DNA of 64,000 nt. Source: Pyrococcus kukulkanii (lineage in GTDB: Archaea > Methanobacteriota_B > Thermococci > Thermococcales > Thermococcaceae). A model generated the notes under the pieces. The model was not told the DNA's origin. It ran no database searches and saw nothing but the letters and a program-made list of their open reading frames with translations. Below are positions 29,457 to 62,842 of this stretch, one piece after another. Location: the NCBI RefSeq assembly GCF_001577775.1, contig NZ_CP010835.1, positions 62,001 through 126,000 of the forward strand, read 5' to 3'. The number at the start of each line of letters is the position of its first letter. The first letter of the stretch is position 1. Made by a program: the position numbers and the translations under genes.

Positions 29457-29804
29457 TTTTTGCTTATTTGTTGTTTATAGATTTTTATTTTTGTCATATT
29501 TCTGATAATTAGTTTCATTGTGCAAAAATTTTTCATTATAGGGGTTCGGAGCTATTGGGTGGAGCCCCCGAATAAGGGGGCGAAAACCCAGGGGTCAAGA
29601 CGGCGGCGTCGGGGGGATTGGGGGCAAAGCCCCCGGCATGAACCCCGCCCTCCTCCCCTGGGTATAGCAAGATGCGCTCCCGAGGAAAACCCCCGAGATG
29701 GGGGGACCCCTCGGGGGCAAGGCAGGCCCGGCACCCCGGTCAAACCCCCGGACGGGGAATTGGTACTCCCCCGCGTGGGGAGTTCCACCGGCCGTACTCC
29801 CTTA
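29457..29804 (+). other. rRNA operon promoter region and 16S leader
   Basis: About 80 AT-rich bases (29457-29540), which must contain the rRNA promoter although I cannot fix a single TATA box, pass abruptly into a GC-rich leader from 29541. The leader holds several strong hairpins (for example GCCCCC/GGGGGC at about 29564-29581) and the 5' half of the 16S processing stem. No coding or small-RNA gene is recognised in it. Confidence 0.7.
29719..29757 (+). other. 16S processing stem, 5' arm
   Basis: 29719-29737 pairs perfectly with 31332-31350 (19 bp), and 29745-29757 pairs perfectly with 31313-31325 (13 bp). Between them GGTC-AAA faces ACT-AAA, a bulge-helix-bulge-like junction for the archaeal splicing endonuclease that would excise pre-16S. 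Confidence 0.85.
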
Positions 29805-31301
<1,497 letters not shown>

Positions 31302-31557: not shown

Positions 31558-34609
<3,052 letters not shown>

Positions 34610-54927: not shown

Positions 54928-55359
54928 ATGAAGTTGCCTTCAGACGTTGACAATATTTTAAAGGGTAGTTCGTGAATTCTGATTTATGAAAATTGGAAAA
55001 TTGGAAAGACTTTGCAGGTAATTGGGGTCATTGTGGGGGTTTTGTTCTTCGTGCTGGCTTATCTAAAAGTTGGTGGATGGGTTTATTTCCTAGCTCTGGC
55101 TTCAATTGGGCTGATATACTTTGGGACTGTTTTAGACGCCTTTGAGAACTACAGCGGAAACGTTAGAAAGTTCAGGATGCTTGAAGTCACGATGATTCTT
55201 CTCTGTGCGCTCTCCTTTGCGTTTGTGAGTGACTACACTCACTCAACGGCCCTTGGAATCGCTGTGAGTGCTCCTTTTTTAGTTCTAGCAGGTTACTTCG
55301 GAAATAAAGTTAGGGAGAAGAAAACCTTTGAGGTCACAGTTCTCATGGGTAAATTCTAG
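54928..55359 (+). pseudogene. small membrane protein gene interrupted by an in-frame TGA
   Basis: ATG 54928 has a good ribosome site (GGTGGGACT) and a TATA box (CGTTTATATCC near 54889). Fifteen codons, MKLPSDVDNILKGSS, are followed by TGA at 54973-54975; the same frame then stays open to 55359 (ILIYENWKIGKTLQV, then four membrane segments such as VIGVIVGVLFFVLAYL). The part after the stop has only a TTG (55012) as start and no ribosome site. A nonsense mutation, recoding or sequencing error could explain this. Family not recognised. Overlaps asnS tail to tail by 17 bases. Confidence 0.65.
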
Positions 55360-56647
55360 CCGGAGTCCTTGGGAAGAGGGTGGCCCACCTTATGTGGTCA
55401 AGCTTCAGAACCCATGCAACCAGCCTCTCAACGCCTAAACCAAAGCCGCTGTGCGGCACTGAGCCGTACTTCCTCAGGTCAAGGTACCACTCGTAATCTT
55501 TGGGGTCCATTCCTTCCTCTATTATCCTCTGAACAAGCTTATCGTAGTTGTCTTCTCTCTCCGATCCTCCGATTATCTCTCCGTAGCCTTCCGGAGCTAG
55601 CATGTCTGCAGCTAACACTTTCCTGGGATCCTGGGGATCTTCCTTCATGTAGAAGGCCTTAATGTGCTTTGGATAGCCGTAGACGAAGAATGGTCTGTCG
55701 AACTCCTCCGTGAGAACTCTTTCTTCATCTGCTCCCATGTCATCCCCCCACTCAATCTTCACGCCCTTGCTCTGAAGGATCTCTATGGCCTCATCGTAGC
55801 TTATTCTTGGGAACGGTGGCTCTGTATTCTTCAGCGTTGTTAAATCGTCCCTAAACATCTCTATCTCATTTTTCCTTAACTCAAGCGTTCTCTGAACCAT
55901 GTAGCTTACTAATTCCTCTTCGACTTTCATTATGTCCCAGAGGTCCATCCAGGCCCCCTCAAGTTCGAGGTGCCAGAACTCTGTTAGGTGCCTTCTAGTC
56001 CTGCTCTTCTCTGCCCTAAAGCTTGGGGTTAGTGACCATACCTTCTCGAGGCCGAAGATTGCAGCCTCTAAATACAACTGGGCAGATTGGCTCAGATAGG
56101 CGTACTTGTCGAAGTACTTGAGCTTGAACAGGGTTGCTCCCCCTTCTACAGCTCCTGTTACGAGTATTGGGGGGAATACTTCGTGCCATCCGTTCTTCAG
56201 GAGCCACTCCCTCGCTGCCATAATGAGTGTTTCCTTGACCTTCATTATGGCAGAGACTTTGGGAGTTCTTATATGGAGGTGCCTGTAGTCGAGCAACAAC
56301 TCAGGACTTGCTTGCTCTGGGTTCTCTGGAATTGGGAACTCGCTTACGGCCTGTATTACTTCAAGTTTTTCGACGTGAACTTCTGCCCCTCCTGGGGCCC
56401 TCTCATCAGCTTTAACTATTCCCTCCACTATAACACTCGACTCTCTTCCGAGCTTCTTTGCCTTCTCAAAAACCTCCTCTCCAACCACATTTTTGGCAAT
56501 TACAGTCTGAACTATTCCAGTTGAGTCCCTAATCCACAGGAATATCTTCTTGCCTACCCTCATGTTGCTGTATACCCATCCCGCGAGCTTGACTCTTTGG
56601 CCGTCGAGTTCCGGTTTTACCTCTTCACAGTACGTCTTCTCAATCAT
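55343..56647 (-). CDS. asnS: asparaginyl-tRNA synthetase
   Basis: Class IIb synthetase of 434 residues: N-terminal OB anticodon-binding domain (VKLAGWVYSNMRVGKKIFLW), motif 2 FRAEKSRTRRHLTEFWHLE, and motif 3 GFGLGVERLVAWVL. It resembles Pyrococcus AsnRS (P. horikoshii PH0241 as I recall) more than the archaeal AspRS. ATG 56647 follows GGTGATGCTC. Upstream on the same strand lie two small RNA genes. Confidence 0.9.
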   Translation of the reverse strand: MIEKTYCEEVKPELDGQRVKLAGWVYSNMRVGKKIFLWIRDSTGIVQTVIAKNVVGEEVFEKAKKLGRESSVIVEGIVKADERAPGGAEVHVEKLEVIQAVSEFPIPENPEQASPELLLDYRHLHIRTPKVSAIMKVKETLIMAAREWLLKNGWHEVFPPILVTGAVEGGATLFKLKYFDKYAYLSQSAQLYLEAAIFGLEKVWSLTPSFRAEKSRTRRHLTEFWHLELEGAWMDLWDIMKVEEELVSYMVQRTLELRKNEIEMFRDDLTTLKNTEPPFPRISYDEAIEILQSKGVKIEWGDDMGADEERVLTEEFDRPFFVYGYPKHIKAFYMKEDPQDPRKVLAADMLAPEGYGEIIGGSEREDNYDKLVQRIIEEGMDPKDYEWYLDLRKYGSVPHSGFGLGVERLVAWVLKLDHIRWATLFPRTPARIYP

Positions 56648-56739
56648 GAGCATCACCTTAACTGGGCCTTCTTCTTGACCCTTCTATATAAGCCCTTCGG
56701 TTATTTGTTCAAAATTTTTCAAAATATTTGTCAAAAAGC

Positions 56740-56796
56740 AGGTCAGCGAAGGGCGTGGTCATCATCTCCTCAGCAAAGCAAAAGCTCTTCATCCCC
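56740..56796 (-). ncRNA. C/D box guide RNA targeting 23S domain I
   Basis: On the reverse strand: box C ATGAAGA (56792-56786), guide 56785-56774, box D' CTGA (56773-56770), box C' ATGATGA (56765-56759), guide 56758-56747, box D CTGA (56746-56743). The D guide matches 23S 31610-31621 in all 12 positions and predicts 2'-O-methylation of G31614 (D+5 rule). The D' guide matches 31771-31781 over 11 positions and predicts G31774. Ends are estimated. It follows an H/ACA-like hairpin on the same strand by a few bases. Confidence 0.9.
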
Positions 56797-56857
56797 TGTA
56801 GGCCCGGCCGGAACCCCCGGTTCACGATTCCCCGGAGAGGGCGGGAGCCGGGCCCTA
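56794..56857 (-). ncRNA. probable H/ACA-like guide RNA
   Basis: A very GC-rich hairpin on the reverse strand: 56855-56847 (GGGCCCGGC) pairs with 56808-56800 over 9 bp, an internal loop separates it from a short CCGG/CCGG upper stem capped by GGAATCGTGAA, which contains GA/UGA elements that could form a K-loop. ACA follows the stem one base later (56799-56797). A reverse-strand TATA box lies 25 bases before its 5' end. I could not find a convincing pseudouridine target, so the class is probable only. Confidence 0.5.
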
Positions 56858-56877: not shown

Positions 56878-56886
56878 AATATAAAA
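56878..56886 (-). promoter_or_regulatory. TATA box for the tandem small RNAs
   Basis: Reverse-strand TTTTATATT, about 25 bases upstream of the start of the H/ACA-like hairpin. No second promoter is visible before the C/D RNA, which suggests one precursor. Confidence 0.55.
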
Positions 56887-57996: not shown

Positions 57997-58055
57997 AGGG
58001 ATGATGAATTTTTCCCTCACTCTGAACTGTGATGAGGAGCCGATGCTCTGACCTC
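57997..58055 (+). ncRNA. C/D box guide RNA targeting 23S, antisense to the aglB 3' end
   Basis: Box C ATGATGA (58001-58007), box D' CTGA (58022-58025), box C' GTGATGA (58029-58035), box D CTGA (58048-58051). The D guide (58036-58047) matches 23S 32011-32021 over 11 positions and predicts methylation of U32014. The D' guide pairs 58011-58020 with 32063-32072 over 10 positions and predicts A32066. AT-rich TATA-like sequence lies at about 57966-57986. From 58017 on it is antisense to the last codons and stop of aglB. Confidence 0.93.
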
Positions 58056-60935
58056 CATTAATGTATACTCTTTCTCTGCTATGAACACTGGTTCTACTCT
58101 TATTCCCCTAATTATTAGTCTGTCCTCATATTTCTCCTCTAGCTCCTTCTTATAGTTGGAGATAACTCCTTCAGGCATTTTGGCTTCTGCAACAACTACA
58201 TTGTCATCTCCCTTGTGGAGCTCCACTCCAGACTTAACTTTCGTTGCAAAGAATACATCCATATGGGGTTCAAATGCAGCATCGTAATCACCATTGCTTT
58301 TGCCTCCTTTCCTTGTTAAATATATGAAGGTGACCCGCAAGTATAGGTCTGCCTTGTAATCCTTGTCCACTCCCACTTTTAGTTCAAGTTTGCCAGACTG
58401 TCCCTCTTTTAGTACCTTTATTGGGCTAACTATCTTTCCATTGACTTTTGGTGGTCCAGTTAGGACACCAACAGGGCCTTTTTGAACTAGAGTAAACCTA
58501 TACTTCTCGGCCTGGGGTAGTGTTACATTAACGATTAGGGGAGTCTCGTTTATGTGGCTCATGTACTTAATTTCTCCTATTTTTATCCTTCTAACTTCAG
58601 TTCCATTTATCGCCTCAACGTAGAGTGTGGCGTTTTTAATGTCCCTTCCAAACGCCGAAATGTATAGTTTCAGTGTGTGCTCCCCAGGGAATAAAGTTGT
58701 GATGGTCTTCCAAGTTCCGTTTATTAATTCTTGGAGCTTATAGATGGCAAAGGGCGTAAACTTGTACACGACGACGTTTCCGTATTGGTACACTGGATCA
58801 AAGTTTGAGAATAACTTATCTGTAAACCCTGGCTCTGTTGACGATGGAATTCCATAAGCTAGCTTTACGAAATTGCTACTTGCAACTTTGTAGTATGTAA
58901 CGACGGCAATGCTTGGAAGGAGGTACACAACGTAAGGAAATCTTCCTCCATTATCACATGTTCCCGTTCCTTGAATCTTTCTGTTCCCTGGTATAAATAC
59001 TCCGAGAATGGGGCTACATTCAGTTGACCCAATTTTTACCTTAACTTGGGAGTTGTTTTGGATCTCAATGGAAACCCCCATATATGGATTAATATAATTC
59101 TCTCCAAATCTTGGAACTAAGAATATTGTTGATACTTGCCCTTTTCCTTCTTCATCTCCCTGATATTCCCTTCTTGTTATGGCACCTCCTAAATAGCTAA
59201 TTGCATTGAACTTGGCCCAGTCGTTAAGATACACAATGAAATAATTAAGTTCCCAACTTTCAAAGTCTACCTCGCTAATATTTCCGTCTCTTGCTAGGAA
59301 TAAAGCCAAGATATGATCTCTATCCCTTGCATGCCCACCATCCGCACTAGCCCTTCTGTTCCCCAGTAAGCTTGACTCTATCCAGTACCCATAGTCCCAC
59401 CAAGAAGTGGCAGTTGCATATTCTGAAGTGTTTTCCCTCAACCACTTTAATACCTGTTCCCATCCACTCGTCTCAATTTCCGTCTTGCTCATAGCTTTTG
59501 CCGCTCTCGCTAATATTGGGCCGTGAGTTATTGGAATTAGAAGGATCATTATTGATATAACAATTGCCAGCGCTGCTTTTATTCCTATTCCTTCCTTCAT
59601 TTTTTCGACGATATCCATTGCATATCCTACTGATATTCCAGCGAAGAGCGCTATCGCATAACTCGCTAGGAATAGGAATCTAACAGCTAGGGAGAGTAAG
59701 TAGAGGGACATTAAGTAAAATACAATACCCAGGAGTTCTTTATGTCGACTTTTTCCACTCTTTAGGAGGCCATGAAAGTACGAAGCTATCATAACTAAGA
59801 ACCCTGGGATACTGAGGAAGAATATTAAACCATTAGGCTTCTCTACTCCGTAATATGCCTTTATATCTGCCATCGTTGTCTTTGCGAGCTCTTGGACTGT
59901 TTGATAGACCTGAGTAGATTGATAGGCCCCTCCCATTAATCTAAACAACTTGGGACCAACGTATGCGTATGCCCCCGCAAAGCCTATGAGAACAACGACC
60001 ATAACCACTGCAAATCTATGTTTCTTATCAGAATAGTTTAGGTACTTCCCTCCGTACAGCATTATCACTACTAGCAGGATTAGGCCTAAAAAGACCTCAA
60101 ATGCAAATTTGATAAATCCCTGTATCTTGGATATTCCCGGTATTGTAAGTAGATAAGCTAAGATTAAAATTGCTAGGTAGGCTGGATAGAACTCTTTTAC
60201 AAACCTCTTTACTTCCTCAATTTTACCAAATATAAAGAGTGCTATGGTTTGTAATGATGCAAAACCTAAGAGCACCATCAGTCCAAAGGGCGATCCATTC
60301 CATGCCATTGTTGAAAGACCTGCTGAGGATACGAAAATTATCCCCCAAATTGCTTTTCTCTTAGCGTTGTCTTCGTGAAGGTAATAAAGCAACGAGAGCA
60401 GGGAGAACATAAAAATCATCATAAATGGCCCATCACCTCTTGCGTTTCCAGAGAACGTCCTAGAGAAATTAGCTGTAGATATTGCTAAAATTGCCGCAGC
60501 CCATAACCCTGCCCAGTCATTTAGGAGCTTTCTTCCTAAGAGATATACTCCAACAACACTTAGAAATCCAACAAATGGGGGCCAAAGTAAAAACGCTTGG
60601 AATTCGTTGTAACCAAAAGCTGAAATGATCTTATAAAATATTGCGGGTAAAATGTAGAGCCCTAAAGGTTCGCCAATTAAACTACCAAAGGGAGCCTCTG
60701 CCATTGGATAATATTTTGGCAATCCTTCTTGTAGTACAAGCTTATAAATCTCGAAGTGATAGAAAGTATCTGGATCTGGGAAGTATTTTCCGGCCGTTAG
60801 ATGTCTTATATGAAACCCGTACCATGCAAAAATCAATGTGAGCATAAATGTGATTATAATCCTTATTGCGGGATATTTAGTTGCAAATATTGTCTTTCTT
60901 TCCTTTTCGTTGTCTTTTCCTTTAATGTTGACCAC
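58017..60935 (-). CDS. aglB: oligosaccharyltransferase AglB (STT3 type)
   Basis: Membrane enzyme that moves the lipid-linked glycan onto Asn in N-x-S/T sequons outside the cell. The 972-residue protein has about 13 membrane segments, the first external loop acidic motif FPDPDTFYHFEIYK (metal/catalysis), the hallmark TSWWDYGYW, and a long C-terminal beta-rich extracellular part, as in Pyrococcus long AglB. GTG 60935 follows GGAGGTGA. It lies 12 bases behind glmS, so both are co-transcribed. Its C-terminal codons overlap a guide RNA on the other strand. Confidence 0.95.
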   Translation of the reverse strand: MVNIKGKDNEKERKTIFATKYPAIRIIITFMLTLIFAWYGFHIRHLTAGKYFPDPDTFYHFEIYKLVLQEGLPKYYPMAEAPFGSLIGEPLGLYILPAIFYKIISAFGYNEFQAFLLWPPFVGFLSVVGVYLLGRKLLNDWAGLWAAAILAISTANFSRTFSGNARGDGPFMMIFMFSLLSLLYYLHEDNAKRKAIWGIIFVSSAGLSTMAWNGSPFGLMVLLGFASLQTIALFIFGKIEEVKRFVKEFYPAYLAILILAYLLTIPGISKIQGFIKFAFEVFLGLILLVVIMLYGGKYLNYSDKKHRFAVVMVVVLIGFAGAYAYVGPKLFRLMGGAYQSTQVYQTVQELAKTTMADIKAYYGVEKPNGLIFFLSIPGFLVMIASYFHGLLKSGKSRHKELLGIVFYLMSLYLLSLAVRFLFLASYAIALFAGISVGYAMDIVEKMKEGIGIKAALAIVISIMILLIPITHGPILARAAKAMSKTEIETSGWEQVLKWLRENTSEYATATSWWDYGYWIESSLLGNRRASADGGHARDRDHILALFLARDGNISEVDFESWELNYFIVYLNDWAKFNAISYLGGAITRREYQGDEEGKGQVSTIFLVPRFGENYINPYMGVSIEIQNNSQVKVKIGSTECSPILGVFIPGNRKIQGTGTCDNGGRFPYVVYLLPSIAVVTYYKVASSNFVKLAYGIPSSTEPGFTDKLFSNFDPVYQYGNVVVYKFTPFAIYKLQELINGTWKTITTLFPGEHTLKLYISAFGRDIKNATLYVEAINGTEVRRIKIGEIKYMSHINETPLIVNVTLPQAEKYRFTLVQKGPVGVLTGPPKVNGKIVSPIKVLKEGQSGKLELKVGVDKDYKADLYLRVTFIYLTRKGGKSNGDYDAAFEPHMDVFFATKVKSGVELHKGDDNVVVAEAKMPEGVISNYKKELEEKYEDRLIIRGIRVEPVFIAEKEYTLMEVRASAPHHSSE

Positions 60936-62785: not shown

Positions 62786-62842
62786 TGTGATGATGAGCTG
62801 GATCCGAGCTGATCTATGATGAGGGAGGTTTAACCTGAGCTA
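62786..62842 (+). ncRNA. C/D box guide RNA, target uncertain
   Basis: Box C ATGATGA (62790-62796), guide 62797-62808, box D' CTGA (62809-62812), box C' ATGATGA (62816-62822), guide 62823-62834, box D CTGA (62835-62838); spacing is textbook. Neither guide has a convincing rRNA match here: the D' guide finds only a 7-bp core at 23S 32952-32958 and the D guide an 8-bp core (AAACCTCC) in 16S near 30165. tRNAs or other RNAs outside the window are possible targets. It is divergent from glmS and antisense to the 3' end of the protease gene from 62814. Confidence 0.88.

What the first reader, a model, noticed from the sequence alone, without database searches (positions are those of the whole stretch)
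56740..56796. C/D box sRNA guiding two 23S positions about 160 nt apart
The D guide has 12 of 12 and the D' guide 11 of 12 matches to 23S, predicting 2'-O-methyl G31614 and G31774. The match of both guides to one rRNA domain makes chance very unlikely.
Basis: partly seen in the sequence, partly recalled or inferred. Interest (0 to 1): 0.65.

Follow-up and report, generated by a model that had tools for sequence, protein, structure and literature searches.

The report
Known two-part rRNA-modification guide RNA

Summary
On the minus strand, 56739-56796 is a canonical archaeal C/D box sRNA. Its D guide matches 23S 12/12 and its D' guide 11/12, predicting 2'-O-methylation of G31614 and G31774. Of 365 CTGA sites in the window, only four have 10/10 upstream rRNA complementarity: these two, and the two of a second C/D sRNA at 57997-58054. 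The description is incomplete. The C/D RNA is the 3' half of Rfam snoR9 (RF00065, 147 bits, 56730-56855 minus). Its 5' half is the H/ACA guide Pab21, published as the same transcript in P. abyssi (PMC4652768, PMC2241582). I predict 16S U30683 as its target. The family is known, so novelty is low. The new part is comparative: the H/ACA half was lost in place at least three times, with the C/D half kept and no relocated copy found. Methylation and transcription were not tested in this organism.

The parts
56730..56855 (-). composite guide RNA Pab21/sR9 (Rfam snoR9, RF00065)
   Evidence: cmscan 147.2 bits, gathering 90, full length 1-128
56880..56885 (-). TATA-like box TTTATA, starts 30 nt upstream of the RNA 5' end
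   Evidence: all 62 fused relatives tested have a box of at least 5/6 match, median distance 29 nt
56797..56855 (-). H/ACA half (Pab21): lower stem 56847-56855 with 56800-56808; upper stem and K-loop 56814-56838; ACA box 56797-56799
   Evidence: model R1 84.5 bits; 8 pairs with two-sided changes, covariation score 0.297 against 0.168 shuffled; fits the published 10/5/9 fold
56839..56846 (-). 5' guide strand of the pseudouridylation pocket (TCCCGCCC)
   Evidence: pairs with GGCGGG of 16S downstream of U30683, the last C left unpaired
56809..56813 (-). 3' guide strand of the pocket (TTCCG)
   Evidence: TTCC pairs with GGAA of 16S upstream of U30683
56786..56792 (-). box C (ATGAAGA)
56774..56785 (-). 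D' guide (GCTTTTGCTTTG); ten conserved nt 56775-56784
   Evidence: 11/12 to 23S 31770-31781; CTTTTGCTTT in all 83 genomes
56770..56773 (-). box D' (CTGA)
56759..56765 (-). box C' (ATGATGA)
56747..56758 (-). D guide (CCACGCCCTTCG); ten conserved nt 56748-56757
   Evidence: 12/12 to 23S 31610-31621; one C-to-T change in 83 genomes
56743..56746 (-). box D (CTGA)
31611..31620 (+). 23S target of the D guide; predicted 2'-O-methyl G31614
   Evidence: invariant in all 23S genes compared
31771..31780 (+). 23S target of the D' guide; predicted 2'-O-methyl G31774
   Evidence: invariant in all 23S genes compared
30679..30690 (+). 16S target of the H/ACA half, GGAA-UU-GGCGGG; predicted pseudouridine U30683 (16S position 879), U30684 as alternative
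   Evidence: 25/2000 shuffles as good

Best explanation
The element is the gene for a composite guide RNA, the ortholog of P. abyssi Pab21/sR9. It has its own promoter and is transcribed on the minus strand. The 5' hairpin binds the archaeal H/ACA proteins (Cbf5, Nop10, Gar1, L7Ae) and guides a pseudouridine, most likely 16S U30683. The 3' half binds L7Ae, Nop5 and fibrillarin and guides 2'-O-methylation of 23S G31614 (D guide) and G31774 (D' guide). Shown here: the boxes, guides, targets, covarying hairpin, promoter-like box and conservation. Inferred from the families: protein binding and catalysis. Taken from the literature on P. abyssi: one transcript, and Pab21 activity in vitro.
For: Full-length Rfam match of 147 bits. 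Guide matches and nulls. Guide cores and 23S targets invariant across Thermococcales while the rest drifts. Hairpin covariation. TATA box at the right distance. Ortholog in G004 at exactly the published P. abyssi transcript coordinates 230,449-575(-). sR9 described as containing C/D and H/ACA regions (PMC2241582). Pab21 RNP active in vitro, lower-stem strand GGGCCCGGC identical here, substrate with a U after the target U as in 16S UU (PMC3726423).
Against: Targets are invariant, so no guide-target covariation can be shown. The box C/D external stem pairs in most genomes but barely covaries (0.841 paired against 0.815 shuffled). The 16S target rests on 10 pairs with a 1.2% chance level, and I could not read the published Pab21 target table. 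No RNA data for this organism.
Confidence: 0.93

Rival explanations
1. Two independent guide RNAs that merely share a promoter: the precursor is cut at the ACA box and the halves work separately. (This is a rival on processing only; the guides and targets are the same.)
For: The C/D half persists alone in many genomes, so it does not need the H/ACA half. Pab21 alone is active in vitro (PMC3726423).
Against: RNA-seq in P. abyssi shows one transcript (PMC4652768). The ACA box abuts the box C stem directly, leaving no spacer for a processing signal.
Confidence: 0.4
2. The C/D half acts mainly as a folding chaperone that holds two 23S domain I segments together, and methylation is secondary.
For: Both guides target one domain 160 nt apart. 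Dennis et al. (PMC4644070) propose chaperoning for double guides, including targets over 100 nt apart.
Against: Both predicted target nucleotides are Watson-Crick paired at N+5 and all boxes are intact, as needed for catalysis. At least one complete relative (G034) shows no sR9 by exact or 3-mismatch search, yet keeps the targets.
Confidence: 0.15
3. Chance sequence resemblance or a pseudogene.
For: None found beyond one box C mismatch.
Against: Rfam score, nulls and conservation in 83 genomes.
Confidence: 0.01

Closest known systems
Rfam RF00065 snoR9 = Pyrococcus abyssi Pab21/sR9
   Same: Full-length match, same order of halves, same lower-stem sequence, same guides, same single-transcript layout
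   Different: Only small sequence differences outside the guides; the member in this genome is not described in the papers read
[quoted passage not shown]
   Same: Boxes, guide lengths, N+5 rule, two guides in one rRNA domain
   Different: Joined to an H/ACA hairpin; targets 160 nt apart, beyond the 100 nt used to define double guides in PMC4644070
Archaeal H/ACA guides HgcF/Pab35, HgcG/Pab40, HgcE/Pab105, Pab91
   Same: Single-hairpin H/ACA unit with K-loop and ACA box
   Different: Different guide pockets; weak hits of the Pab21 model in other genomes are these families

Membership tests
Rfam RF00065 snoR9 | covariance model score above the gathering score, full length | tested here: met
   147.2 against 90 bits, positions 1-128
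Archaeal C/D box sRNA | boxes C, D', C', D in order with 10-12 nt guides | tested here: met
   box C has one mismatch
Archaeal C/D box sRNA | guide complementary to rRNA with a Watson-Crick pair at N+5 | tested here: met
   both guides
Archaeal C/D box sRNA | external stem between the ends | tested here: inconclusive
   the three inner pairs form in most of 83 genomes, little covariation
Archaeal C/D box sRNA | binds L7Ae, Nop5 and fibrillarin and directs methylation | not testable with these tools
   needs RNP pull-down and RiboMeth-seq
Archaeal H/ACA guide (Pab21) | hairpin with internal pocket, K-turn or K-loop, and ACA 14-15 nt from the upper stem | tested here: met
   10/5/9 arrangement, 14 nt to ACA
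Archaeal H/ACA guide (Pab21) | pocket complementary to rRNA around a U | tested here: met
   16S GGAA-UU-GGCGGG, 25/2000 shuffles as good
Archaeal H/ACA guide (Pab21) | directs pseudouridylation | not testable with these tools
   shown in vitro for P. abyssi Pab21 (PMC3726423), not for this organism

The most novel reading that the evidence does not exclude
The composite works as one particle that couples a 16S pseudouridine to two 23S methylations, and the lineages that dropped the H/ACA half have uncoupled them. If so, the species with only the C/D half lack the pseudouridine at 16S U879 and form a natural experiment on what that mark does.
Probability: 0.12. Interest if true: 0.5.

Novelty: already known. 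Interest (0 to 1): 0.2.

Why it matters
It confirms by computation that raw-sequence reading can find a true guide RNA and its exact targets. It also shows that a known composite guide RNA loses its H/ACA half repeatedly and never, in this sample, its C/D half alone. That makes a simple prediction: 16S U879 unmodified in the species that lost it, both 23S sites methylated in all that keep the C/D half. Mapping modifications in two or three species could test it.

Tried and rejected
A relocated stand-alone Pab21 in genomes that lack the H/ACA half: the weak hits checked are HgcF, HgcG, HgcE or Pab91, not Pab21. First pocket register for the H/ACA target was wrong in orientation or spacing and gave only weak 23S candidates; replaced. 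Guide-target covariation: impossible, targets invariant. Occurrence outside Thermococcales: 0 of the 21 other genomes of the phylum match the guide pattern or RF00065; only a sub-threshold hit in the M. jannaschii control. Published Pab21 target: the table is not readable in the library copy. Published methylation map for P. furiosus: announced but not found.

Full report
Observation. The minus strand of 56739-56798 reads CAGGGG-ATGAAGA-GCTTTTGCTTTG-CTGA-GGAG-ATGATGA-CCACGCCCTTCG-CTGA-CCTG (the first two letters belong to the ACA box of the upstream half). It has the four boxes of an archaeal C/D sRNA and two 12-nt guides. The D guide is complementary 12/12 to 23S 31610-31621 and the D' guide 11/12 to 31770-31781.

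Chance. Shuffled guides do as well in 4/2000 and 6/2000 cases. A stronger control is the window itself: of 365 CTGA sites outside the rRNA region, four have a perfect 10-nt upstream rRNA match, and these are the two boxes here and the two of another C/D sRNA at 57997-58054.

What it is. Rfam places a full-length snoR9 (RF00065) at 56730-56855 on the minus strand, 147 bits against a gathering score of 90. This family is composite. In P. [quoted passage not shown] The ortholog in G004, whose hit coordinates fit P. abyssi, lies at exactly those positions. PMC2241582 likewise says that sR9 contains both a C/D and an H/ACA region. In the window the H/ACA half is 56797-56855; its lower-stem strand GGGCCCGGC is the one printed for Pab21 in PMC3726423.

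H/ACA half. Over 21 distinct sequences, 94% of the cells of the 16 pairs form a standard pair, 8 pairs change on both sides, and the covariation score is 0.297 against 0.168 in shuffles and at most 0.098 when slid. By free energy alone the hairpin is not exceptional (z -1.5). The pocket matches 16S GGAA-UU-GGCGGG, target U30683; 25/2000 shuffled pockets do as well. PMC3726423 says that the substrate of Pab21 has a U right after the target U, which fits. It also suggests two pairing modes, which would fit U30683 and U30684. I could not read the published target list, so this target is a prediction.

Conservation. 83 of 94 Thermococcales genomes match RF00065. In the 83 genomes with a readable C/D half the D' core CTTTTGCTTT is invariant and the D core CACGCCCTTC has one change, to a G-U pair. 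Position 1 next to each box and the outer guide positions drift although the 23S targets do not. The functional duplexes are therefore most likely 10 bp each. No match was found in the 21 other genomes of the phylum. No guide-target covariation can be expected with invariant targets.

Loss of one half. In genus g4, in g2 and g6, and in several g3 and g5 genomes, the H/ACA half is gone or a remnant, while the C/D half is intact. In G091 and G092 a piece of the hairpin is left. A model of the H/ACA half finds no relocated copy; the weak hits checked are HgcF, HgcG, HgcE and Pab91. On a 23S tree of 60 rows the label needs 4 changes, also when only well-supported branches are used. Three of them (G092; G054; G041 with G067) lie inside fused clades and so are losses; the direction for g4 and G002 is open because the root is not known. 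No genome was seen that kept the H/ACA half and lost the C/D half. In genomes with the C/D half alone, a TATA-like box usually lies 26-59 nt upstream of the C/D RNA, against a median of 29 nt upstream of the fused RNA; G041, G067 and G092 have none clear.

Mechanism. Most likely each half recruits its own enzyme, Cbf5 for the pseudouridine and fibrillarin for the two methylations, with L7Ae on both. The two 23S sites are 160 nt apart in domain I. Dennis et al. (PMC4644070) call guides with targets within 100 nt double guides and propose folding roles for wider pairs; that remains possible here. Steps shown here are sequence features; binding, catalysis and processing are inferred.

Verdict. 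The RNA is an ortholog of a catalogued family, so it is ordinary in kind. The repeated loss of the H/ACA half is a modest comparative observation that I did not see in the papers read.

Noticed in passing
57997-58054 (+): A second C/D sRNA (snoPyro_CD); both guides, TTTCCCTCAC and GAGCCGATGC, match rRNA 10/10. It is antisense to the 3' end of the oligosaccharyltransferase-like gene 58017-60935.
   Followed up: partly
62786-62840 (+): Rfam sR49 C/D sRNA, 67 bits.
   Followed up: no
29564-29666 (+): Pab19 H/ACA RNA just upstream of the 16S gene, probably in the rRNA leader.
   Followed up: no
L053, L054, L057, L058, L061-L063, L171 and G064:C192: In some genus-g3 genomes the D'/C' spacer of sR9, about 2-5 nt elsewhere, has grown to about 14-21 nt, often hairpin-like, perhaps turning a K-loop into a K-turn; guides unchanged.
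   Followed up: partly
G034 (complete genome, 1.52 Mb): No sR9 found by RF00065, by the exact guide pattern or by a 3-mismatch pattern, although its 23S keeps both target sites.
   Followed up: partly
L064 (G056): The H/ACA half has lost the CCGCC guide strand: decayed or retargeted.
   Followed up: no
L031 (G059): Box D reads CAGA and the D guide carries the only core change: the C/D half may be decaying.
   Followed up: no
55343-56656 (-): asnS-like gene starts 86 nt downstream of box D on the same strand; co-transcription with the guide RNA is possible.
   Followed up: partly
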